Below are positions 1,626 to 21,665 of a stretch of DNA of 64,000 nucleotides, in pieces. Source of the stretch: Haloterrigena turkmenica DSM 5511 (lineage in GTDB: Archaea > Halobacteriota > Halobacteria > Halobacteriales > Natrialbaceae); NCBI RefSeq assembly GCF_000025325.1, contig NC_013743.1:372001-436000 (forward strand), in the 5' to 3' direction. The notes beneath the pieces were generated by a model. It saw only the letters and a list, made by a program, of their open reading frames with translations, made no database searches and was not told where the DNA came from. The first letter of the stretch is position 1; each line of letters opens with the position of its first letter. The translations under genes and the position numbers were made by a program.

Positions 1626-3455
1626 ATGAGCAGCCAACAACGAGACGCGAAAGTGTACGTCAACGGGTCGCTGGTGGGGACCCATCCCGATCCGCACGAG
1701 CTAGCCGAACAGATCCGCGAAGCGCGACGCATCGGTGACGTTTCCGAGATGGTCAACGTCTCGGTGAAAGAGCGCACCCGCGAAGTGATCGTCAACGCCG
1801 ACGCCGGCCGCGCGCGACGACCCCTGTTGGTCGTCGAGGACGGCGAACCGCGCATCTCCCAACAGGAGATCGAGGCGCTGCAGGACGGCGACCTCGAGTT
1901 CGACGATCTCGTCGACCACGGCTACGTCGAATTCATTGACGCCGAGGAGGAAGAGGACATCCTCGTGGCCGTCGACGAAGAGCACCTCACGGAGAAGCAC
2001 ACCCACCTCGAGATCGACCCGTCGCTGATCTTCTCGATCGGTGCGGGGATGATTCCCTACCCCGAGCACAACGCTTCGCCGCGTATTACGATGGGGGCAG
2101 GGATGATCAAGCAGTCGCTGGGGCTCCCGTCGGCCAACTATCGAATCCGGCCGGACACGCGCCAGCACCTGCTGCACTACCCCCAGCTCTCGATGGTCAA
2201 GACCCAGACCACCGAACAGATCGGTTACGACGAGCGCCCCGCGGCGCAGAACTTCGTCGTCGCCGTGATGAGCTACGAGGGGTTCAACATCGAGGACGCG
2301 CTGGTCATGAACAAGGCCAGTGTCGAGCGCGCGCTTGCCCGGTCGCACTTCTTCCGGACCTACGAGGGCGAGGAACGTCGCTACCCCGGCGGCCAGGAGG
2401 ATCGCTTCGAGATCCCCTCCCAGGACGTCCGCGGGGCTCGCGGCGAGGACGCGTACAATCACCTAGACGAGGACGGTCTCGTGAATCCGGAGACGACGGT
2501 CGACGAGAACTCCGTCCTGCTCGGGAAGACCTCCCCGCCGCGCTTCCTCGAGGAACCCGACGACATGGGCGGACTCTCGCCCCAGAAACGCCGTGAGACC
2601 TCGGTGACGATGCGCTCCGGCGAATCGGGCGTCGTCGACACCGTTACCCTCATGGAGGGCGAGGACGGCTCGAAGCTCTCGAAGGTCTCCGTGCGCGACG
2701 AGCGGATCCCCGAACTCGGGGACAAGTTCGCCAGCCGGCACGGTCAGAAGGGTGTCGTGGGCCACCTCGCACCCCAGGAAGACATGCCCTTCACCGAGGA
2801 GGGCGTCGTCCCCGACCTCGTGCTCAACCCCCACGCCCTGCCCTCCCGGATGACCGTCGGCCACATCTTAGAGATGATCGGCGGCAAACTCGGCTCGATG
2901 GAGGGCCGGCGCGTCGACGGGACGCCGTTCCTCGGCGAGGACGAGGACGAACTCCGCGACGGCCTCGAGGACGCCGGCTTCGATTCGGCCGGCAAGGAGA
3001 CCATGTACTCCGGGGTCACCGGCGAGAAGATCGAGGCCGAGATCTTCGTCGGCGTGATTTTCTACCAGAAGCTCTACCACATGGTCTCGAACAAGCTGCA
3101 CGCCCGCTCGCGCGGGCCGGTGCAGGTGCTGACCCGCCAGCCGACGGAGGGGCGCGCCCGCGAGGGCGGGCTCCGTATCGGGGAGATGGAACGCGACGTG
3201 TTCATCGGCCACGGGGCCGCGATGACGCTGAAAGAACGACTGCTAGACGAGTCCGACCGCGAGTTCATCCACATCTGTGCGAACTGTGGGATGAGCGCGG
3301 TCGAAAACGTCGAACAACGGCGCGTCTACTGTCCGAACTGCGACGAGGAAACCGATATCCACGAGATCGAGATGAGCTACGCGTTCAAGCTCCTGCTGGA
3401 CGAGATGAAGGCGCTGGGTATCGCACCGCGACTCGAACTGGAAGACGCCGTCTAA
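1626..3455 (+). CDS. rpoB1: DNA-directed RNA polymerase subunit B' (C-terminal half of Rpo2)
   Basis: This 609-residue protein is the C-terminal half of the split second largest subunit. It includes the hybrid-binding domain and the wall and clamp parts of the core. Visible hallmarks are [15 protein letters not shown], the segment around [14 protein letters not shown] followed by [10 protein letters not shown], and a C-terminal zinc site formed by CANC and CPNC. It starts 6 nt after rpoB'' and ends 3 nt before rpoA', so the core subunits can be made from one transcript. Nothing looks broken. Confidence 0.97.
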
Positions 3456-9943: not shown

Positions 9944-10597
9944 TCAGAGCCACTCGACGCGATACTCGCAGCGGTGATCTCCGTCCGATCGACACTGGTC
10001 GCCGACTTCCTCCACCTCGACGGGATTGTTGGCGAACTTCTTCGCGACGCCCTTGATGAGCCCCTTATCGAATTCGCACGGATAGGGGTTCTCACAGATC
10101 ATAATGCCCTCGTTCGGTCCTTCCTGTTGGAACTCATAGGAGCCGATCTCACTGCCGCGGTGGTTCTGGTGGTACGCCGTATCGATCCCCCGTAGCGCGT
10201 TATCGACCTCGGAAAGTTCCGGTGGAAATTCGACGTGCTCCGGGACGTTTTGCCCCATATTCCGCATTCTAACCCCGCCATATTCGTCGCGCATATCGTA
10301 CAGCATGGCGAGCGGAATTTCGAGCGGATACCACTCATCGGGCTCGATGTCCTCGAGTCCGTACTCGGCGAGTTTATTGGCGATCTGTTTCCCCACGAAC
10401 GAGGAGACTGATTCGCCCGCAGCGATGTACGACAGGGGACTCCGCCCGATCACTTCCGAGTCCTCGAGTGACCCGTCGAATCCAATTCGATCGTCTACCG
10501 TCGGCAATTCATCACTGGACCGAGACTCCTCGTGGGAAAGACCGACGAGTCGCTTGAACCAGGATGTGGTGACGAATACCGTATTGGTTGTAGCCAT
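9944..10597 (-). CDS. 4VR/HNOB-like ligand-binding domain protein
   Basis: A 217-residue protein. The C-terminal CRSDGDHRCEYRVEW resembles the end of V4R (4-vinyl reductase) domains, which carry a Cys-x-x-GD-x-x-Cys motif and bind small hydrophobic ligands or heme-like groups in sensors. Two further Cys in ICENPYPCEFDKG could take part in a metal or disulfide site. The N-terminal third is not recognised. The start at 10597 is preferred over an upstream GTG, and an inverted repeat lies just upstream. It is convergent with the aldehyde dehydrogenase. A sensory or regulatory role is inference. Confidence 0.55.
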   Translation of the reverse strand: MATTNTVFVTTSWFKRLVGLSHEESRSSDELPTVDDRIGFDGSLEDSEVIGRSPLSYIAAGESVSSFVGKQIANKLAEYGLEDIEPDEWYPLEIPLAMLYDMRDEYGGVRMRNMGQNVPEHVEFPPELSEVDNALRGIDTAYHQNHRGSEIGSYEFQQEGPNEGIMICENPYPCEFDKGLIKGVAKKFANNPVEVEEVGDQCRSDGDHRCEYRVEWL

Positions 10598-11401: not shown

Positions 11402-12010
11402 ATGGCGGCAGAAGACCAACCAGACCCCGACGCCCCCGCGGGCGGAGCCGACGTCGGTGCGCAGCTGTTCGGCACCTGGGAGATCGACGAGATCGCCTAC
11501 GAGGATCCCTCGACCGAACGCTACATCACGGTGACGCCGGTCGCACACACCGCCGGTCGTCACGCCAGCAAGCAGTTCAAGAAGTCCCAGATCTCCATCG
11601 TCGAGCGGTTCATCAACCGTCTCATGCAGACCGAGGAGAACACGGGCAAGAAACAGAAGACGCTCAACCACGTCCGTGACGCGTTCGAGCTCATTCACGA
11701 GCGTACCGACGAAAACCCCGTTCAGGTGCTCGTAACCGCCGTTGAGAACGCGGCCCCGCGCGAGGAGACTGTCCGCCTGAAGTACGGTGGCATCTCGGTC
11801 CCCAAAGCCGTCGACGTCGCACCCCAGCGTCGCGTCGACCAGGCCCTGAAGTTCCTCGCGGAAGGCGTCTACAACGACTCGTTCAAGACGCCCACGCCCG
11901 TTGAAGAGGCCATCGCCAACCAGCTCGTCGGCGCGGCCAACTACGACGTCCAGACCTACGCAGTCAGTCAGAAAGAAGAAAAAGAGCGCGTCGCAGCGGC
12001 TGCACGCTAA
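11402..12010 (+). CDS. rps7: 30S ribosomal protein S7 (uS7)
   Basis: This 202-residue protein organises the head of the small ribosomal subunit near the E site. Recognisable segments are the FGTWEIDEI start of the conserved core, FINRLMQTEENTGKKQ, and the region around NPVQVLVTAVENAAPREE. Its length is normal for an archaeal S7 with an acidic haloarchaeal N-terminal extension. It starts 2 nt after rps12 and is presumably co-transcribed. EF-2, which usually follows, lies about 7.5 kb downstream beyond the CHAT island. Confidence 0.96.
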   Translation: MAAEDQPDPDAPAGGADVGAQLFGTWEIDEIAYEDPSTERYITVTPVAHTAGRHASKQFKKSQISIVERFINRLMQTEENTGKKQKTLNHVRDAFELIHERTDENPVQVLVTAVENAAPREETVRLKYGGISVPKAVDVAPQRRVDQALKFLAEGVYNDSFKTPTPVEEAIANQLVGAANYDVQTYAVSQKEEKERVAAAAR

Positions 12011-12076: not shown

Positions 12077-12265
12077 CTACAGTTCGCTGGTCTTGATCTG
12101 CGTGCTCCAGCGGAGATCTCCGTCGAGCAGTACGGGGAACTCCTCTCTGTTGAGAAACTCGATGAGGTCCGGCCTCGAGACGTGCTGGAATGATAGCTTT
12201 CCTGGAACGAGATAATACGAATCCGCACTCGAAAGGTACGGTGTATAGACGGAGCCAGGTTTCAG
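12077..12265 (-). pseudogene. 3' remnant of a third CHAT-family gene
   Basis: The minus strand reads 62 residues, beginning LKPGSVYTPYLSSADSYY and ending with FLNREEFPVLLDG and RWSTQIKTSEL before a TAG at 12077-12079. This aligns without gaps to the C-terminal end of the adjacent CHAT protein (GSLFIPYLNSIDEYY, FINSDRFPVLLDG, QWSNEIKLSDL) and to the second one. An in-frame TGA lies immediately upstream of residue 1, and the rest of the family sequence is missing, so this is a truncated gene. It lies just beyond the stop of the intact CHAT1 gene. Confidence 0.75.
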
Positions 12266-12320
12266 TCACTTTATTATTGGCCTCGTCTTTCGTCCGACAA
12301 GGATTCAGTGTGTCCCCTGC

Positions 12321-14324
12321 TTAGTGTAGATCGCTCAGCTTTATTTCATTACTCCACTGGAATTGGCCGTCTAACAGGACCGGAAATCGATCCGAGTTAA
12401 TGAACTTAACTAGTTGGGGTTTTTCAACAGAAATCGGCCCAATTTGATTTGGAGAGATATAATACTCGTCTATTGAATTCAAATAGGGAATAAAAAGACT
12501 CCCTTTTTGCTCCTGATTTCCAGAATATGATTTAATACTGATCGTTGCGCTGCCGCTATCGGTATCGATTGCATAGATACTCCAGAGTCCGGTCTCTGGT
12601 TGCGTTATCGTTTTCTTCCCGTCCCCGATAACGTGATACTGATTTCCGAGATTGGTTTCCATCCGTGTAATATCGAGTGCGGCATATAGTGAGTAACCGT
12701 AATTCAGTAGATTAGAAATCGTACGTCCGATTCGGACAGCCTCTTTATTAGCGACTGTGTCGAGCGTAACAATTCCGCTAATGCTTCCGGCTTCGATAAG
12801 TTGCAACCCTTGATCGTGTGATTGACACGCGTTAAGTAGGAATGCCTTCGCGCCAATCTTCTCGACGTTCGCAGCATCCAATTGTCCGTTCGAACATCTG
12901 AATCCATCGCTATCGATATGACCAATATAATGAAGGAAGTCGCTTTTTCTAGAGAGTACTTCCTCAAGTTCAGCCGTTGTGAGGTCTTGGAAGACCGTAA
13001 TATCGAATGGCAGGTCATCACGGTTTCCGTATGAACTGTAAACTGACAAAAGCTCATCACGCATCGCTTGGTCATTACAAACGACTACTATCTCGAGTGG
13101 CCCGTCACGTGGCGTCTGATCTATCCCATTCTCAAATGCCGATAACAGTATTGTACTCGTGATCTCGGTGTGGCCATCGTGCCACGATTGTGACGCCGTA
13201 ACGGTCTCTGATTCGTCTGTAGTATTAGCACTCGTCCCGTCAAAGGCTATCTGCGTCGGTGCACTCGCATCCTGTTCGACGGAAATCGTCCCGAGGCCCG
13301 CTACGATAAATGGTAAAAACTCCACGTGTTCTGGAATTTCCTTTAAATCAGTTTTGAGACGCCATTCCGGAATGTACGAAGCTATCTCTGCAAAGGGAGT
13401 ACTAAGATACGCCTCTAGTTGGTTTTCTAGCGGTTGACCATAGATATCTTCAATATTGAAATCTAGTACTGATTCTAACTCTTGGCGTTCGTATAACTGA
13501 ATGGGTGTTGTTCCTTCTGTTCGAACAATACAATCGAGGAGGAAAATTTGCCGTATAACACGGCTAACTACCGAATTAAATCCATCCTTCGATTCGAGTG
13601 AGCAAGAAAACCCGCTATCAGTAACGAGTCGAGGTTTCGGTCCTGGAACGACCGTTGCTGCGAGATAGTACGCTAGCGGTGCAACGACGAAGGCGTGGCG
13701 GAGAGTCGGTGGAACTTCAATTCTCACACCAGTATTCGGTAGCGTCAACTCATCTGGGATATTAAGTTCATTGTCTACCGTTATCGTAGGTGGATGTCCA
13801 CGAAGCGTCGGATATGATCGTTCGGATCCTGTCGTTTTCAAAGCTGAACCGAACATCGAAATTGCTTCCATTACATCAGTCGGTTCAGCAGTTGTTGAGA
13901 TCGTCGTTGCCGGTCTCGTATGATGTGACCGTGCACTTACTGTTATTGGCGTTCTCTCCCCAAATCTAATAACTGTATTTCGGTCCTTATTTTGGATATG
14001 AACTTCGCTCTTAGCAGTAGCATACAATTTGATACCTGTAGAGATATCTATAATATATTCCTTTTCCGGAAGGTCAAGTTGTTCGTTAAGTCGGACTTCG
14101 TCTATCAACGTCCAATTCGAGTCACGAACGTAGACGACATTACTGCTCGGGATCTCGAAACCGCTAGTTGTGATTTCTACTGCAGAATCCATTGGATACG
14201 GTATCTTGCTAGCAGTAGTTGATCGTAGCGAGAGGGTGGTATCTGTTTGGAGTAGGCTCTGCCTCCGTTCGATCGGATCGACAATTACCAACCCTTCTCC
14301 AGTTGCGTTGAATTTTGGTTTCAT
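12321..14324 (-). CDS. CHAT-domain caspase-like protein, copy 1
   Basis: A 667-residue protein starting MKPKFNATGEG. Residues 1-390 form an unrecognised N-terminal region shared with copy 2, with the invariant motif ERSYPTLRGHPP near residue 168. Residues about 395-600 form a CHAT domain of the caspase/separase clan. The catalytic dyad is visible as His469 in LHYIGHID and Cys500 in FLLNACQS. About 70 C-terminal residues follow the domain. CHAT proteins are proteases, often in stress or immunity pathways that cleave a partner; the target here is unknown. The DNA is markedly AT-richer than flanking genes. It is divergent from the HalX-like gene, and no membrane segment or signal peptide is obvious. 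Confidence 0.8.
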   Translation of the reverse strand: MKPKFNATGEGLVIVDPIERRQSLLQTDTTLSLRSTTASKIPYPMDSAVEITTSGFEIPSSNVVYVRDSNWTLIDEVRLNEQLDLPEKEYIIDISTGIKLYATAKSEVHIQNKDRNTVIRFGERTPITVSARSHHTRPATTISTTAEPTDVMEAISMFGSALKTTGSERSYPTLRGHPPTITVDNELNIPDELTLPNTGVRIEVPPTLRHAFVVAPLAYYLAATVVPGPKPRLVTDSGFSCSLESKDGFNSVVSRVIRQIFLLDCIVRTEGTTPIQLYERQELESVLDFNIEDIYGQPLENQLEAYLSTPFAEIASYIPEWRLKTDLKEIPEHVEFLPFIVAGLGTISVEQDASAPTQIAFDGTSANTTDESETVTASQSWHDGHTEITSTILLSAFENGIDQTPRDGPLEIVVVCNDQAMRDELLSVYSSYGNRDDLPFDITVFQDLTTAELEEVLSRKSDFLHYIGHIDSDGFRCSNGQLDAANVEKIGAKAFLLNACQSHDQGLQLIEAGSISGIVTLDTVANKEAVRIGRTISNLLNYGYSLYAALDITRMETNLGNQYHVIGDGKKTITQPETGLWSIYAIDTDSGSATISIKSYSGNQEQKGSLFIPYLNSIDEYYISPNQIGPISVEKPQLVKFINSDRFPVLLDGQFQWSNEIKLSDLH

Positions 14325-14526
14325 TGTCACAACATTCTCTGTAGAATTCTCCTGATGCGGTCGCCGTCCATATCAAATTAGATGATTGTTGGAGGGAATA
14401 TATGTTATGGCTGTTCTATATATTCTAATAGCGTAGCAGTTACGCAAATATATTAGATAGTTGATGAATTCTTCTTTGTACCTAACCACATTTAATAGTA
14501 TCTGCCCGCCCAGTATTGATAGAGCT
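14325..14526. promoter_or_regulatory. Divergent promoter region with compound dyad element
   Basis: AT-rich region between divergent CHAT1 and the HalX-like gene. A nested dyad runs from 14424 to 14457: TCTAATA then GCGTA on the left, a 5-nt centre, TACGC, five extra bases, then TATTAGA on the right. A TATA-like tttaata at 14491-14497 lies about 30 nt before the GTG at 14527 and supports that start. The dyad could be an operator serving both genes. Confidence 0.5.
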
Positions 14527-15093
14527 GTGTTGCTGAAATCTACCTCTCGACTGTTCGTCGTCCATCCTACCCTCTCCCTTCCCGACCTGGGTACCGATCA
14601 GGCACGAATCGCGGCAACGGTTCGACAGGCCGACTTCGACCGGTCGATCCTCGATCAGATCGACGATAGCTACGATCTTCTCGTTCTCGATTGGGAACTC
14701 GAGACGCCCGACGCTCGTGGCGTCCTCGACGCGTTTCGTCAACGGGCTCCAGAAACCCAGATACTCGCGCTTGCTGACGATGTCCCCACCGACGATCCCG
14801 TCGACCGGGGTGCAGATGAACTCCTCGTTAGACCGCTTTCGGATGGAAAACTACAGTCGACGATCGAACGCCTACTGCTCCAACAAGCCTACGAAACGGC
14901 GATGGACGACTTCTTTCGCCTTTCAACCGAACGAGCGCTACTCGAGAGCGAACTTCAGGCCGGACTCGATGTCACTGATCGGTACCGATCCGTCGTTTCT
15001 GACCTCTACGACGCTCGTGAACGGACAGCCGCCATTCGAGACGAACTCTCGAGTGATGAGTTCGATCAGGCGCTACGACAGCTGCTCGAATAA
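14527..15093 (+). CDS. Degenerate receiver-HalX domain protein
   Basis: A 188-residue protein of receiver-like plus HalX layout, a combination common in haloarchaeal response regulators. The phospho-acceptor position is visible as Asp in YDLLVLDWEL. However, the N-terminal acidic pair is replaced (LFVVHPTLS) and the conserved switch Lys is Arg (LLVRPLS), so normal phosphorylation is doubtful. The C-terminal 75 residues (from QAYETAMDDFFRLSTERALL) form the helical HalX part. The GTG start at 14527 is chosen because a TATA-like box sits about 30 nt upstream and residues before it do not fit the fold; the open frame reaches 14461. It is divergent from CHAT1 and upstream of the DUF7503-type peptide gene. 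Confidence 0.65.
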   Translation: MLLKSTSRLFVVHPTLSLPDLGTDQARIAATVRQADFDRSILDQIDDSYDLLVLDWELETPDARGVLDAFRQRAPETQILALADDVPTDDPVDRGADELLVRPLSDGKLQSTIERLLLQQAYETAMDDFFRLSTERALLESELQAGLDVTDRYRSVVSDLYDARERTAAIRDELSSDEFDQALRQLLE

Positions 15094-15207
15094 TTTTCCC
15101 TTTGTCCGTCGTACTGTTTCCGCATTTATCATCGTTCTCTAAACAATTTTGAACAGACTTGTTACCCAATAACACTATTATTTATTCATCTGATAAATTA
15201 AAATAAA

Positions 15208-15215
15208 TTTATAAT
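15208..15215 (+). promoter_or_regulatory. TATA box of the small peptide gene
   Basis: The sequence tttataat lies in a very AT-rich stretch, 28-35 nt upstream of the ATG at 15243. This is the spacing expected for a leaderless or near-leaderless haloarchaeal transcript, and it is among the clearest TATA boxes in the window. Confidence 0.6.
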
Positions 15216-15242
15216 ACTCGCCGGATATGTCTAAGGTGTACC

Positions 15243-15371
15243 ATGGACGACCTAACCCAACACCTGAAGAATCACCCACGAATGATTGGCGTTCTGTTTA
15301 CGATTGCAGTGGCGCTATCGCAAGCTGGAACCGCTGCGGCCGGTGCAGGAGCTGGCTTCACCGGAATATAA
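15243..15371 (+). CDS. Small DUF7503-type hydrophobic peptide
   Basis: A 42-residue protein. The N-terminal 13 residues are polar (MDDLTQHLKNHPR), then a hydrophobic helix of about 20 residues (MIGVLFTIAVALSQAGTAAA) and a short Gly/Ala-rich tail ending GFTGI. The HPRMIGVLFT segment matches my memory of the haloarchaeal DUF7503 family, tiny proteins often encoded near DUF7504 or HalX genes. A strong TATA box lies at the right distance. The stop at 15371 is 3 nt from the stop of convergent CHAT2. It could be a single-pass membrane peptide or a signal-peptide-like precursor; function is unknown. Confidence 0.65.
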   Translation: MDDLTQHLKNHPRMIGVLFTIAVALSQAGTAAAGAGAGFTGI

Positions 15372-15374
15372 CTG

Positions 15375-17438
15375 TTATAGTCGGTCTACGTCGACATTTT
15401 CGCTCCAGACTACGTTCCCATTAGTCACGACTGGAAACATCTCCATTTCTAAGAAATCAGCGAGTTGGTCCCTGTCTAGGGAATAATCACCGGATCTTCC
15501 AGAGACAAGAAAATAATCGTCTTCTCCGTCCAGATAGGGGATGAACAAACTTCCTTTACGGAATTCGTTTTTAGTATATGTGTCGATTGTCATACTGAAG
15601 GTGTCTCCTTCGCTGTCAATCAGACAAACGAATGGGGGTGCAGTTTCCGATTGCGCTATTGTTGTTTTGCTGTCTCCAACTACGCAATACTGTTCTCCAA
15701 CTAAGGTATCTTTCCGCGCAATATCGAGTGCAGCATGGAGGGGAAATCCTCGATTCAATAGGCGTGCAATCGTTTCACCAATTTTAACTGCACTGTTATT
15801 AATAACATCCGAGAACGTTACTATTCCACCGATACTTCCGGCTTTCACTAACTGCAGCCCTTGATCATGAGATTGACATGCGTTGAGGAAAAAGGCATCA
15901 ACACCCGTTTCATCGACAGCAGTTATCTCTAACTTTCCATCTGTACACTGGAACCCCTCATCGTCGATATGGCCGATGAAATGAAAGAAATCTATCTCTT
16001 TTGATAATACCGATCTTAACTGTTCGACAGTAGTGTTATAATAAATTGAAACATCAAACGGAAGTTCAGCACGATTCCCATAAATATCATTAACTGCTTT
16101 TAGTTCTTCTCGCATTTCTGAATCATTACAAATGACAATAATTTCAATCGGATCTTCCCTCGGCGTTTGTTCAATACTATTATAAAACGCGGAAAGTGGT
16201 GTTATTCCTGTTATACTAGTTGTCCCCAAACAATCCCAATCTTGTTTAATAGTTGTTGTATCTGGCAGTGTATTCGAGATAGATCCCTTTGAGATTCCTC
16301 GGTTTGGGTTTGTATTTCGCGTAGAGGAACCCCTTGTAAATCCTTCAATTGCTCGTACCTGGTTTTCCGTTTCCTGCGTTTGTCCCTCAACTATATTCAC
16401 AAGAGCAAGCGAATCTGCCAAAAACGGGAGGAACTCTACTTCTGAAGAGGTCCCTTGGAGTTCCGTCGTTGCTCTCCACTTGGGGAAAACGGATTCTACT
16501 ATTGAATGATCTACGGCGAGGTATTCTTCAATCTGATCAACGAGATCCATATTATATACGTTTTCGAGGCTAAATCCGAGCTTCGGTTCAGTTAGTTGTC
16601 GTTCGTAGAGCGGAAGTGGGGTTGTCCCCTCAGTTCGAACTACACAATCGAGGAAGAATAGCCGTTTGAGGAGACGTTCTACGGTCAACTCAAGCCCTTC
16701 ATTCTCGTCTAAGTCAAATTTGAAACCATTTTCTGTGGTGAGTCGTGGCTCTGAACCCGGGATAACTTCGGCACCAAGATAGTATGCTAACGGTGTAACA
16801 ACAAATATACTGCCGAGGTCCGGCGGGACTTCGATCTGAATGCCAGTGTCTGGCCGGTCGAATTCACTGGGGATACGTAATTCGTTACCGAGTTCAACAA
16901 TTGGTGGATGGCCACGGAGAGTCGGATAGGACCGCTCAGGTGTTGTTGACTTGAGTGCAGAACCAAATATCGAAACCGCTTGCATTATATCGGACGGCTC
17001 TGACGAGGTTGTGATCGTCCCTGCAGGGCGTCTGTGGTATGACCGAGCGCCGATAGTCGCTCGAGTCGATTCGTCGAGCGTAATGTACGTTCGCTCGGAG
17101 TCGGAGTAGATATAAACAGAACTCTCGACGCAGGCATAGACTTTCAGTGGACCAGACAAATCAAGCGTATAAGTGTCCGCTGGCAGTGATGACTGCTTGT
17201 TTGGTCGAACCTCGGAAATCATTGCCCCGTCCTCATCGCGGACATAGACGCTCTCATTCGTGGGTAGCGTGATCATCCCCGTCGTTACTTCAACAGCGGT
17301 TGTGACTGGAAACTGGATTCGATCTGGATCTACTGGCTCCGGATCTACGCGCTCGTGAGTCGTCAGTCGATACCGGTGACGTTCGATCGGATCGATAATC
17401 TCGAGGCCGTCGTCAACGGGTTCGAATTTCGGTTTCAT
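15375..17438 (-). CDS. CHAT-domain caspase-like protein, copy 2
   Basis: A 687-residue paralogue of the CHAT1 protein. It shares the start (MKPKF), the ERSYPTLRGHPP motif, FVVTPLAYYLGAEVIPG and RTEGTTPLPLYERQ, then the CHAT domain with His490 in FHFIGHID and Cys521 in FFLNACQS. A Ser/Thr/Asn-rich insert before the catalytic domain is longer than in copy 1. The open frame runs up to 17600, but 17438 matches the paralogue and avoids overlap with the upstream DUF7504-type gene, whose stop is 76 nt away, so both probably form one operon. Base composition is GC-rich at the 5' end and AT-rich downstream, suggesting mosaic origin. Confidence 0.8.
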   Translation of the reverse strand: MKPKFEPVDDGLEIIDPIERHRYRLTTHERVDPEPVDPDRIQFPVTTAVEVTTGMITLPTNESVYVRDEDGAMISEVRPNKQSSLPADTYTLDLSGPLKVYACVESSVYIYSDSERTYITLDESTRATIGARSYHRRPAGTITTSSEPSDIMQAVSIFGSALKSTTPERSYPTLRGHPPIVELGNELRIPSEFDRPDTGIQIEVPPDLGSIFVVTPLAYYLGAEVIPGSEPRLTTENGFKFDLDENEGLELTVERLLKRLFFLDCVVRTEGTTPLPLYERQLTEPKLGFSLENVYNMDLVDQIEEYLAVDHSIVESVFPKWRATTELQGTSSEVEFLPFLADSLALVNIVEGQTQETENQVRAIEGFTRGSSTRNTNPNRGISKGSISNTLPDTTTIKQDWDCLGTTSITGITPLSAFYNSIEQTPREDPIEIIVICNDSEMREELKAVNDIYGNRAELPFDVSIYYNTTVEQLRSVLSKEIDFFHFIGHIDDEGFQCTDGKLEITAVDETGVDAFFLNACQSHDQGLQLVKAGSIGGIVTFSDVINNSAVKIGETIARLLNRGFPLHAALDIARKDTLVGEQYCVVGDSKTTIAQSETAPPFVCLIDSEGDTFSMTIDTYTKNEFRKGSLFIPYLDGEDDYFLVSGRSGDYSLDRDQLADFLEMEMFPVVTNGNVVWSENVDVDRL

Positions 17439-17514
17439 AGCATCGGCAGCTGAGAGGGGAACGGCTGGTCGCCCGGCGAGATAGTAGACGTGACGCTCGA
17501 GTACCGGATAGACG

Positions 17515-18240
17515 TTACGACTGCTCGATCGAGAGCCAACCGGAACTGTGGTCGCCGTCGTTGATCGTCCACCGTTCCTGAAAGACGCCGTTTCGATCAC
17601 GGAGTTCGATGACGATATCGAACACCGGCGACAGGACCGAAACGACGTCGGAGTCGCGGTCCAGCGGGAGATGATAGTGGATCATGCCGTCGGCGTCTCG
17701 GGCGCGGCCGTTGGTCAGGTGGGCGAATTTGAAGACGCGTTCGGCGCCGTACTCCTCGAGCAGCGGAACGAGCGAATCGACGGCAATGCGGAGTTCGCCC
17801 GGTGCGAGGCTGGTGTCGTTGCGTTCGAACTCCTCGATGGCGTTCGAGACGGCGATTCCGAGGTCGGCGAGCGTGGCGGCGGTGGTCGGGGAGTCGTCGG
17901 CCTGCATGGAGACGGATTCCATCGACTGCGAGCCGCTGTTGGCGGCGGTAGCGCCCCGAGACTGCGTTTCGTAGTTGACGAGTGCGGTTGTCGCCGACTT
18001 GGTGTCGTAGCTGTCGGCGAGATGTGACATGGCGTGGCCTTCGCCGGTCGTCGAGACGAGGACGCGCCGGCGCGGCTGGGACGTTGCCTGCCCCAACAGG
18101 CGTCGACTGACCTCCTGGCGCTGTTCCGTCCGGACGGCTCCGACGACGAGCACGCTCGCCCCCCGGCGTTTCAACTGCGATAGCTCTGCCGTGAACTGCT
18201 CGTCCCCGGACCCGCTACCCCAGCCTTTGCGCGAGAACAT
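17515..18240 (-). CDS. DUF7504-type haloarchaeal signalling protein
   Basis: A 241-residue protein that I associate with the haloarchaeal DUF7504 family, a RecA/KaiC-like fold without an obvious Walker A motif. Visible are LKRRGASVLVVGAVRTEQRQ where a P-loop would stand (no GK[ST]), RRRVLVSTTGEG after it, a low-complexity middle (residues about 95-125), and a C-terminal half containing VDSLVPLLEEYGAERVFKF. The ATG at 18240 is preferred over the TTG one codon upstream. It precedes CHAT2 on the same strand and may regulate or scaffold it; that is inference. GC content is normal for the genome, unlike the CHAT genes. Confidence 0.55.
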   Translation of the reverse strand: MFSRKGWGSGSGDEQFTAELSQLKRRGASVLVVGAVRTEQRQEVSRRLLGQATSQPRRRVLVSTTGEGHAMSHLADSYDTKSATTALVNYETQSRGATAANSGSQSMESVSMQADDSPTTAATLADLGIAVSNAIEEFERNDTSLAPGELRIAVDSLVPLLEEYGAERVFKFAHLTNGRARDADGMIHYHLPLDRDSDVVSVLSPVFDIVIELRDRNGVFQERWTINDGDHSSGWLSIEQS

Positions 18241-19478: not shown

Positions 19479-21665
19479 ATGGGCCGACGCAAGAAGATCG
19501 TCCAAGAGTGTGAACGGCTGATGGACGAACCGGAGAACATCCGGAACATCGCCATCGCCGCTCACGTCGACCACGGGAAAACGACGCTTTCTGACAACCT
19601 CCTCGCGGGTGCAGGCATGATCTCCGACGAGACTGCCGGCGAACAGCTCGCGATGGACACGGAGGAAGACGAGCAGGAACGTGGGATCACCATCGACGCG
19701 GCGAACGTTTCGATGACCCACGAGTACGAGGGCACCAATCACCTCATCAACCTCATCGACACGCCGGGCCACGTCGACTTCGGTGGCGACGTCACCCGTG
19801 CGATGCGCGCCGTCGACGGTGCGCTGGTCGTCGTCGACGCCGTCGAAGGGGCCATGCCCCAGACCGAGACGGTGCTGCGACAGGCGCTGCGCGAGGGCGT
19901 CAAGCCGACCCTGTTCATCAACAAGGTCGACCGCCTGATCTCCGAACTGCAGGAAGGTCCCGAGGAGATGCAGCAGCGACTCCTCTCGGTCATCCACGAC
20001 GTCAACGAGCTCATCCGCGGGATGACTCAGGACATGGACGACATCGAGGACTGGACCGTCTCCGTCGAGGACGGCACCGTCGGATTCGGATCCGCACTCT
20101 ACAAGTGGGGCGTCTCGATGCCTTCGATGCAGCGCACCGGGATGGACTTCGGCGAGATCATGGAACTCGAGCGCAACGACAAGCGCCAGGAGCTCCACGA
20201 GCGGACGCCGCTGTCGGACGTCGTGCTCGACATGGTCTGTGAGCACTTCCCGAACCCGGTCGACGCGCAGCCTCGTCGTATCCCGCGTATCTGGCGCGGC
20301 GACGCCGAGTCCGAACTCGCGGAACAGATGCGTCTCGTCAACGAGGACGGCGAGGTCGTCTTCATGGTCACCGACATCTCGATGGACCCACACGCGGGCG
20401 AGATCGCCTCCGGTCGCGTCTTCTCGGGTAGCCTCGAGAAGGGCCAGGAGCTGTACGTCTCCGGGACTGCGGGCAAGAACCGCATCCAGTCGGTCGGCAT
20501 CTACATGGGTGGCGAGCGCGAGGAAGTCGAAGAGGTACCCGCGGGTAACATCGCCGCCGTCACCGGTCTCAAGGACGCCATCGCCGGCTCGACCGTCTCG
20601 AGCACGGAGATGACGCCGTTCGAGTCGATCGAGCACATCTCCGAGCCGGTCATTACGAAGTCCGTCGAGGCCCAGAACATGGACGACCTGCCGAAGCTGA
20701 TCGAGACGCTCCGACAGGTCTCCAAGGAGGACCCGACGATCCAGATCAACATCAACGAGGACACCGGCGAGCACCTGATCTCCGGACAGGGTGAGCTCCA
20801 CCTCGAGGTCATCACCCAGCGTATCGAGAAGAACCAGGGCATTCCGGTCAACACCGGTGAGCCGATCGTCGTCTACCGCGAGCAGCCCCAGAACCCCAGC
20901 GACGAGGTCGAGGGCATCTCGCCGAACCGCCACAACCGCTTCTACATCTCCATCGAGCCGATGACGGACGAACTCGTCGACACCATCAAGCTCGGCGAGG
21001 CCTCGATGGACATGCCCGAGCAGGAACGCCGCGAGGCCCTGCAGGAAGCCGGCATGGACAAGGACACGTCCCAGAACGTCGAGCACATCCACGGGACGAA
21101 CATCCTCATCGACGACACGAAGGGTATCCAGCACCTGAACGAGACGATGGAACTCGTCGTCGAAGGTCTCGAGGAGGCCCTCGACAACGGCCCGCTGGCC
21201 AACGAGCCGGTTCAGGGGACGCTCATCCGCCTCCACGACGCCCGGCTCCACGAGGACACCATCCACCGCGGTCCGGCACAGGTCATCCCGGCGACCCGCG
21301 AGGCCGTCCACAAGGCCCTGATTGACGGGAAGATCAAGATCCTCGAGCCGATGCAGGACGCCCGCATCGACGTGCCCAACGACCACATGGGCGCCGCCTC
21401 CGGCGAGATCCAGGGTCGTCGTGGCCGCGTCGACGACATGTACCAGGAAGGGGACCTCATGGTCGTCGAGGGTATCGCGCCCGTCGGCGAGATGATCGGC
21501 TTCGCGTCCGACATCCGCTCCGCGACCGAGGGTCGTGCCTCCTGGAACACGGAGAACGCCGGCTTCGAGGTCATGTCCGACTCCCTCCAGCGCGACAAGA
21601 TCATGGAGATCCGCGAGCGCAAGGGCATGAAGCTCGAGCTGCCGCCGAGCATCGACTACCTGTAG
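19479..21665 (+). CDS. fusA: Translation elongation factor EF-2
   Basis: This 728-residue GTPase translocates the ribosome along mRNA. G motifs are visible: AHVDHGKTT (G1) near residue 28, [15 protein letters not shown] (G3) and NKVDRL (G4). The C-terminal half holds domains III-V, with the diphthamide-bearing His expected in [17 protein letters not shown] near residue 600. Length is normal for an archaeal EF-2. It is normally adjacent to rps7; the CHAT island separates them here. The tuf and rps10 genes, often next, are not in the window. It ends before a T-rich terminator. Confidence 0.97.

What the first reader, a model, noticed from the sequence alone, without database searches (positions are those of the whole stretch)
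12077..18240. Haloarchaeal CHAT (caspase-like) island: two proteases, a degenerate HalX regulator, a tiny membrane peptide and a DUF7504-type protein
Seen: two paralogous proteins with an intact His/Cys dyad of the CHAT type (GHID and NACQS), a third truncated copy, a receiver-HalX protein lacking the acidic pocket, a 42-residue single-helix peptide with a strong promoter, and a DUF7504-type protein directly upstream of one CHAT gene. Known: CHAT proteases act in bacterial immunity and programmed cell death by cleaving partners, including pore formers. Inference: this could be a stress, immunity or cell-fate cassette in which the small peptide or another substrate is controlled by CHAT cleavage. 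The shared N-terminal region with the motif ERSYPTLRGHPP is not one I know.
Basis: partly seen in the sequence, partly recalled or inferred. Interest (0 to 1): 0.85.

Follow-up and report, generated by a model that had tools for sequence, protein, structure and literature searches.

The report
Haloarchaeal caspase-like protease–micropeptide pair
Salt-loving archaea almost universally carry a gene for a caspase-like protease that sits tail-to-tail with a tiny 42-residue membrane-peptide gene, a conserved two-gene module that nobody seems to have described and that could help explain the unexplained caspase-like activity of these organisms.

Summary
Between rpsG and EF-2 of a Haloterrigena genome lie two divergent CHAT-type (clan CD) proteases with an intact His/Cys dyad, a CHAT remnant, a degenerate HalX protein, a 42-aa DUF7503 peptide and a KaiC-fold DUF7504 protein. 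The robust unit is the pair CHAT + DUF7503. In 59 Halobacteria genomes, 66 of 67 DUF7503 hits are convergent with a CHAT gene within 300 bp (median 28 bp), in roughly 30 unrelated gene contexts. All 80 paired CHATs examined keep His490 and Cys521. DUF7503 has a promoter-like element found exactly once in the 5.4-Mb genome, an almost invariant P-R/K + transmembrane segment + V/A-x-A site, and a 7-10-residue tail usually ending in Gly-Pro (dN/dS 0.02 for the last two residues). DUF7504 joins about half of the pairs; HalX few. Within the genus, both CHAT genes have apparently been exchanged for alleles only about 50% identical while neighbours stay 90-98% identical. I read it as a membrane peptide-protease switch. 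Immunity or cell death has no direct support. Whether the peptide is substrate, regulator or secreted signal cannot be settled by sequence.

The parts
12080..12262 (-). C-terminal remnant of a third CHAT-family gene
   Evidence: 46% identity to CHAT1 residues 606-666, E 1.2e-13; one TGA inside the profile match
12321..14324 (-). CHAT1, divergent CHAT/clan CD cysteine protease, 667 aa, no DUF7503 of its own
   Evidence: clade of str-locus second copies, all unpaired
14530..15093 (+). degenerate receiver-HalX protein (ORF open from 14461; start uncertain)
   Evidence: HalX 21.9 bits, below the 23.2 cut-off; alignment of relatives
15198..15212 (+). DUF7503 promoter-like element TTAAAATAAATTTAT (palindromic core ATAAATTTAT)
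   Evidence: 0.24 chance matches expected in the window at up to 3 mismatches; core occurs once in the genome; conserved upstream of most DUF7503 genes
15243..15371 (+). DUF7503 42-aa single-helix membrane peptide
   Evidence: PF24335 67.7 bits; only copy in the genome; purifying selection
15375..17438 (-). CHAT2, 687 aa, catalytic His490 and Cys521, paired with DUF7503 (3 bp between the two genes)
17515..18240 (-). DUF7504 protein, KaiC/RecA-like fold, 76 bp upstream of CHAT2 on the same strand
   Evidence: PF24336 192.9 bits; model pLDDT 82.6; Foldseek best hits KaiC

Best explanation
The core is a two-gene module: a cytoplasmic caspase-like CHAT cysteine protease and its dedicated membrane micropeptide, DUF7503. 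SHOWN by sequence: strict convergent pairing, an invariant dyad in paired CHATs, purifying selection on the whole peptide, and a dedicated conserved promoter element. INFERRED: the peptide inserts with N-terminus inside and C-terminus outside (R/K just before the hydrophobic stretch, uncharged tail), and its cytoplasmic stub (L..YL..HPR) engages CHAT at the membrane. The pair then acts as a proteolytic switch: the state of the peptide at the membrane controls CHAT, most likely with CHAT cutting the stub beside the invariant P-R/K. DUF7504 (KaiC fold) and, in some lineages, a HalX pseudo-receiver are accessory regulators. My sub-estimates: dedicated functional pair 0.9; direct protein-protein action 0.6; the peptide is a CHAT substrate 0.35.
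For: 66 of 67 DUF7503 hits in 49 genomes are convergent within 300 bp of a CHAT; the single exception is 1.4 kb from one. About 30 distinct gene contexts, so not plain synteny. 5 of 5 plasmid copies picked from another collection also have the convergent DUF7503 and a DUF7504-family neighbour. Of the seven class-wide genomes without any CHAT, none has a convincing DUF7503 (one weak hit, E 0.002). H490 and C521 are kept in 80 of 80 paired CHATs; the only clear losses are unpaired copies. Fold: SAVED-CHAT E 4.9e-8, gingipain Z 18.9, separase Z 15.8, Craspase Z 12.8. DUF7503: P 79/79, R/K 79/79, G 78/79, F 78/79, A 77/79; dN/dS 0.20 for N-part plus helix and 0.02 for the last two residues. Promoter element at 12 or more of 15 positions in 72% of DUF7503 genes against 0.14% of 1427 control upstream regions.
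Against: No protease activity or peptide binding was tested, and no complex could be predicted with these tools. The large CHAT3 clade (tbsP-glyA locus) and the str-locus CHAT1 copies keep the dyad without an adjacent peptide, so catalysis does not need linkage. Distances of DUF7503 and CHAT2 are not correlated beyond flanking genes in the str locus (partial rho 0.07, p 0.25). The constrained Gly-Pro end should lie outside the cell if the topology is right, where a cytoplasmic CHAT could not reach it. The A2 profile was seeded with CHAT-adjacent peptides, which may favour such hits; the independent Pfam model was run only on the window's own genome. The genomes are related, so counts are not independent events.
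Confidence: 0.55

Rival explanations
1. Peptide signalling. DUF7503 is a propeptide: an export segment with a V/A-x-A signal-peptidase site, releasing a 7-10-residue peptide ending in Gly-Pro; the neighbouring CHAT protein is its intracellular receptor and effector, an archaeal analogue of propeptide-receptor quorum-sensing pairs.
For: -1 Ala in 77/79 and -3 Val/Ala in 76/79; tail of 8-9 residues in 71/79, variable inside, GP at the end in 65/79; the end is under extreme constraint; one propeptide gene next to one large protein; CHAT alleles diversify, and the peptide's C-terminal type follows CHAT clades (5 changes against 12 in shuffles). RRNPP systems are two adjacent genes, propeptide and intracellular receptor (PMC10075063).
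Against: The hydrophobic segment is far more conserved than a mere signal peptide needs; the pair is convergent; Pfam finds no TPR or HTH in the CHAT proteins; the co-variation of tail and CHAT clade may only reflect adjacency.
Confidence: 0.2
2. Conflict or death effector. CHAT, triggered by stress or infection, frees or activates DUF7503, which oligomerises through its small-residue helix face and permeabilises the membrane.
For: Single helix with a conserved face and G-x-x-x-A motif; CHAT genes are fast evolving and apparently swapped between distant alleles; other CHAT proteases act in immunity by cutting a dedicated partner (Csx29-Csx30, PMC10028731).
Against: No convincing PADLOC hit, no viral relative, present in 125 of 125 genomes of the family at fixed core loci; no gasdermin-like gene in the cassette.
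Confidence: 0.15
3. CHAT is the general housekeeping caspase-like protease; DUF7503 does something separate and stays linked because its transcript is antisense to the CHAT 3' end or by hitch-hiking.
For: 48 of 80 pairs are no more than 10 bp apart and 19 overlap; high basal caspase-like activity in Haloferax was read as housekeeping (PMC3615174).
Against: Linkage kept through about 30 relocations with strict orientation; 32 of 80 pairs have gaps over 10 bp, up to 253 bp, and are still paired; the peptide itself is under protein-level constraint.
Confidence: 0.1

Closest known systems
SAVED-CHAT / TPR-CHAT (Craspase Csx29) proteases
   Same: CHAT caspase-like fold with an extra caspase-like half before the active domain, His/Cys dyad, gene adjacent to a dedicated partner
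   Different: no TPR or SAVED domain found by Pfam, no CRISPR gene seen beside it, partner is a 42-aa membrane peptide; Pfam CHAT score below cut-off
HetF (cyanobacterial CHAT protein in development and division)
   Same: CHAT protein in a non-immune cell-fate role at the membrane (PMC8406250)
   Different: HetF carries its own transmembrane and TPR parts in one chain; here the membrane part is a separate peptide
RRNPP propeptide-receptor quorum-sensing pairs
   Same: short exported-looking propeptide gene next to a large intracellular protein
   Different: no TPR receptor, convergent orientation, strongly conserved hydrophobic segment, archaeal
Haloferax volcanii caspase-like activity
   Same: haloarchaeal caspase-like proteolysis with no gene assigned (PMC3615174)
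   Different: activity known only from extracts; the link to these CHAT genes is an inference
DUF7503 (PF24335) and DUF7504 (PF24336)
   Same: direct family members
   Different: both are listed without function; the pairing with CHAT was not found described in the papers held

Membership tests
CHAT / clan CD cysteine proteases | caspase-hemoglobinase fold | tested here: met
   AlphaFold model pLDDT 82, pTM 0.82; SAVED-CHAT, gingipain and separase top the matches
CHAT / clan CD cysteine proteases | catalytic His and Cys in GH and N-x-C-x-S motifs | tested here: met
   120 of 124 homologues, 80 of 80 paired ones
CHAT / clan CD cysteine proteases | PF12770 score above the curated cut-off | tested here: not met
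   12.7 against 24 bits for CHAT1, no match for CHAT2; best E 0.01 among 20 relatives. So filed as CHAT-like by fold and dyad, not as a Pfam member
CHAT / clan CD cysteine proteases | proteolytic activity | not testable with these tools
   needs enzyme assay
DUF7503 | PF24335 above cut-off | tested here: met
   67.7 against 27 bits
DUF7504 | PF24336 above cut-off | tested here: met
   192.9 against 27 bits
HalX response regulators | HalX domain and intact receiver | tested here: not met
   HalX 21.9 against 23.2 bits; receiver 16.1 against 30.2
RRNPP quorum sensing | TPR-containing intracellular receptor | tested here: not met
   no TPR in Pfam scans of CHAT members; a single weak TTC5_OB hit is an OB fold
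RRNPP quorum sensing | adjacent short propeptide with export signal and C-terminal mature peptide | tested here: inconclusive
   anatomy fits, processing not testable
gasdermin-protease death systems | gasdermin-fold pore former next to the protease | tested here: not met
   partner is a 42-aa single-helix peptide
known anti-phage defence systems | match to PADLOC models | tested here: not met
   only one weak, partial match, E 0.0074, 12.3 bits

The most novel reading that the evidence does not exclude
An archaeal peptide-signalling system: DUF7503 is a secreted-peptide precursor yielding an 8-9-residue Gly-Pro-ended signal, and the convergent, allelically diverse CHAT protein is its receptor-protease, so that a caspase-like enzyme reads a peptide signal.
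Probability: 0.18. Interest if true: 0.93.

Novelty: new variant of a known kind. Interest (0 to 1): 0.76.

Why it matters
Haloferax volcanii has strong caspase-like activity with no known gene (PMC3615174). This work gives candidates present in 52 of 59 sampled Halobacteria genomes and a specific partner peptide, so the question becomes testable by deletion; the control genome H. volcanii contains DUF7503 and DUF7504. A widespread archaeal protease-micropeptide pair with its own promoter element and exchanging alleles would be a new regulatory device, whether it proves to be a switch, a death trigger or a signal.

Tried and rejected
(1) The Pfam CHAT model as a search tool: no match in the own genome, so protein and profile queries were used. 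(2) Sequence search of the PDB with the full-length profile: nothing; the CHAT domain alone gives SAVED-CHAT at E 0.034. (3) Mirror-tree test of DUF7503 with CHAT2: not significant. (4) Viral origin: 49 pattern matches, none a relative. (5) The full five-gene cassette as the conserved unit: HalX is near only 5 of 62 pairs outside the str locus. (6) R (not K) before the helix as a strict cleavage signal: K occurs in 11 of 79. (7) Recent foreign island because of low G+C (0.45-0.46): the str-locus position is conserved in 20 relatives, so it is old, though the alleles exchange.

Full report
WHERE AND WHAT. The window is G000:C1:372001-436000 of a 5.44-Mb genome in 7 contigs. A same-genus genome (G026) has a contig of exactly the same length as Haloterrigena salina NZ_AOIS01000011.1, so the genus is Haloterrigena. 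By its size the window genome would be H. turkmenica DSM 5511; that last step is from memory. The genes lie in the str region between rpsG (11402-12010) and EF-2 (19479-21665). From left to right: CHAT remnant (-), CHAT1 (-), HalX-like (+), DUF7503 (+), CHAT2 (-), DUF7504 (-), then DUF5781 (-).

IDENTITY. CHAT1 and CHAT2 are 47% identical. Pfam CHAT is only a sub-threshold hit. An AlphaFold model of CHAT2 (pLDDT 82, pTM 0.82) matches SAVED-CHAT (E 4.9e-8), separase and gingipain. VIA-align gives gingipain Z 18.9, SAVED-CHAT 16.5, separase 15.8 and Craspase 12.8 over residues of about 320-600. The dyad H490/C521 is invariant in 20 diverse members and present in 120 of 124. The distance between His and Cys in the model could not be measured. 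The N-terminal part (including ERSYPTLRGHPP) is conserved across the family but was barely tested by the fold search. DUF7504 models as a KaiC/RecA-like domain; its sequence shows no obvious Walker A motif (VLVVGAVRTEQRQ).

CO-OCCURRENCE. The family is present in 125 of 125 genomes of the same family and 52 of 59 genomes across the class. Outside Halobacteria, 4 genomes of one family in the phylum sample have a relative. DUF7503 has one copy in the own genome, the one here. In 59 class-wide genomes, 66 of 67 DUF7503 hits (two or three marginal ones aside) are convergent with a CHAT within 300 bp, median gap 28 bp. In the 80 pairs read in detail, 48 have gaps of at most 10 bp and 19 overlap. 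Crude clustering of neighbours gives 34 contexts; allowing for missed links, about 30. They include the str locus and the glpK/glpABC-aglB locus. Five plasmid loci from another collection all show the convergent peptide and a DUF7504-family gene near by. DUF7504 lies within 3 kb of 44 of 83 paired CHATs and 23 of 62 outside the str locus, against 1 of 31 unpaired CHATs there; HalX lies near 22 and 5.

PHYLOGENY. A tree of 124 CHATs splits a clade at the glyA-tbsP locus, almost all without DUF7503 and including this genome's third copy, from a large clade that is mostly paired. The str-locus second copy (CHAT1 here) is a clade of 15 unpaired genes that share the single DUF7503 between the two proteases. 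This is a FastTree tree with local supports only.

THE PEPTIDE. 79 distinct DUF7503 sequences align without gaps from the P-R/K motif to the Ala at -1: P 79/79, R/K 79/79, G 78/79, F 78/79, Q 69/79, G 68/79, A 77/79, with V or A at -3 in 76/79. The tail is 7-10 residues and ends in GP in 65/79. Pooled over 23 pairs, dN/dS is 0.20 for the N-part plus helix, 0.19 for the inner tail (synonymous sites near saturation) and 0.02 for the last two residues (one pair, in L098, is a within-genome duplicate). So it is a real gene and its free end matters. Non-GP ends cluster on the CHAT tree (5 changes against a shuffled mean of 12), but adjacency alone could cause this.

THE PROMOTER. A 15-bp element TWARATAAATTYATT starts about 42-44 nt before the ATG. 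72% of DUF7503 genes match at 12 or more positions, against 0.14% of 1427 control upstream regions. The core AARATAAATTYAT occurs once in the whole own genome, here; with looser matching only this place stands out from the reversed-pattern control. It resembles a long TATA region with a palindromic core and implies dedicated regulation of the peptide.

ALLELE EXCHANGE. Against G024, G025 and G026, the window's DUF7504, HalX and DUF5781 are 90-98% identical with 73-86% identity at fourfold-type sites. CHAT1 and CHAT2 are 47-53% identical with 36-40% there, and DUF7503 is 73% identical. Against G027, whose DUF7504 and HalX are less similar (83%, 85%), the CHATs are closer (73-77%). The identity profile drops at the CHAT genes and recovers in HalX and DUF7504. 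Fast amino-acid change alone would not saturate synonymous sites, so replacement by divergent alleles is the likely cause.

MECHANISM. I commit to a protease-micropeptide switch at the membrane, with sub-estimates of 0.9 for a dedicated pair, 0.6 for direct action and 0.35 for cleavage of the peptide by CHAT. The invariant dyad in paired CHATs argues that catalysis is needed. The constraint on stub, helix and C-terminus argues that the whole peptide is functional. The secreted-signal reading explains the AxA site and GP tail better but the conserved helix worse. The death-effector reading fits other CHAT systems (PMC10028731) but lacks defence signs. HetF (PMC8406250) shows that a CHAT protein can serve cell fate and division.

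KNOWN OR NEW. Papers held contain neither DUF7503 nor CHAT domain together with haloarchaea or DUF7504. Public annotation already names a few relatives 'CHAT domain-containing' or 'caspase family', so the protease type is recognised; the pairing, promoter and allele exchange appear undescribed. Caspase-like activity in Haloferax without a known gene (PMC3615174) is the open question this bears on; the link is an inference.

LIMITS. Genomes are related and counts are not independent; the DUF7503 profile was seeded from CHAT-adjacent copies; the mirror-tree test was negative; no biochemistry is available.

Noticed in passing
L045:7370-9493 (G000:C1:1769369-1771492): Third full-length CHAT homologue of this genome, with normal G+C, between glyA and tbsP, dyad intact, no DUF7503; the locus is conserved in nearly all fetched relatives of that clade.
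   Followed up: partly
L067-L083, upstream of DUF7503 (e.g. L075, L069): In the glp/agl locus an inverted repeat of the type CCAAYGG...CCRTTGG lies between the promoter element and the ATG, like an operator or a 5' hairpin.
   Followed up: no
L146:5101-12040: Three tandem CHAT homologues in which the catalytic His and Cys positions read Glu and Pro, apparently inactive copies.
   Followed up: no
L085:7388-12380: Two CHAT-DUF7503 pairs in tandem, each CHAT followed by its own convergent peptide.
   Followed up: no
L098:7504-7800: Tandem duplicate of DUF7503 with identical protein but 93% identical DNA beside one CHAT.
   Followed up: no
L069-L083, cluster c8 upstream of CHAT: In the glp locus the gene directly before CHAT is often an AAA+ (Orc/Cdc6-like by eye) ATPase in place of DUF7504.
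   Followed up: no
window 12080-12262 and 12321-14324: The CHAT remnant behind CHAT1 suggests an earlier tandem or gene conversion at this end of the island.
   Followed up: partly
window 1827-1920: ARAGORN calls a tRNA-Val (aac) inside an RNA polymerase subunit gene (1626-3455); probably a false positive.
   Followed up: no
window 9944-10597: V4R-domain protein on the minus strand between an aldehyde dehydrogenase and rpsL, kept with the dehydrogenase in four other Haloterrigena loci.
   Followed up: no
G176, G185, G194, G203: Only non-haloarchaeal relatives of the CHAT family found in the phylum sample; whether they have a DUF7503 was not checked.
   Followed up: no
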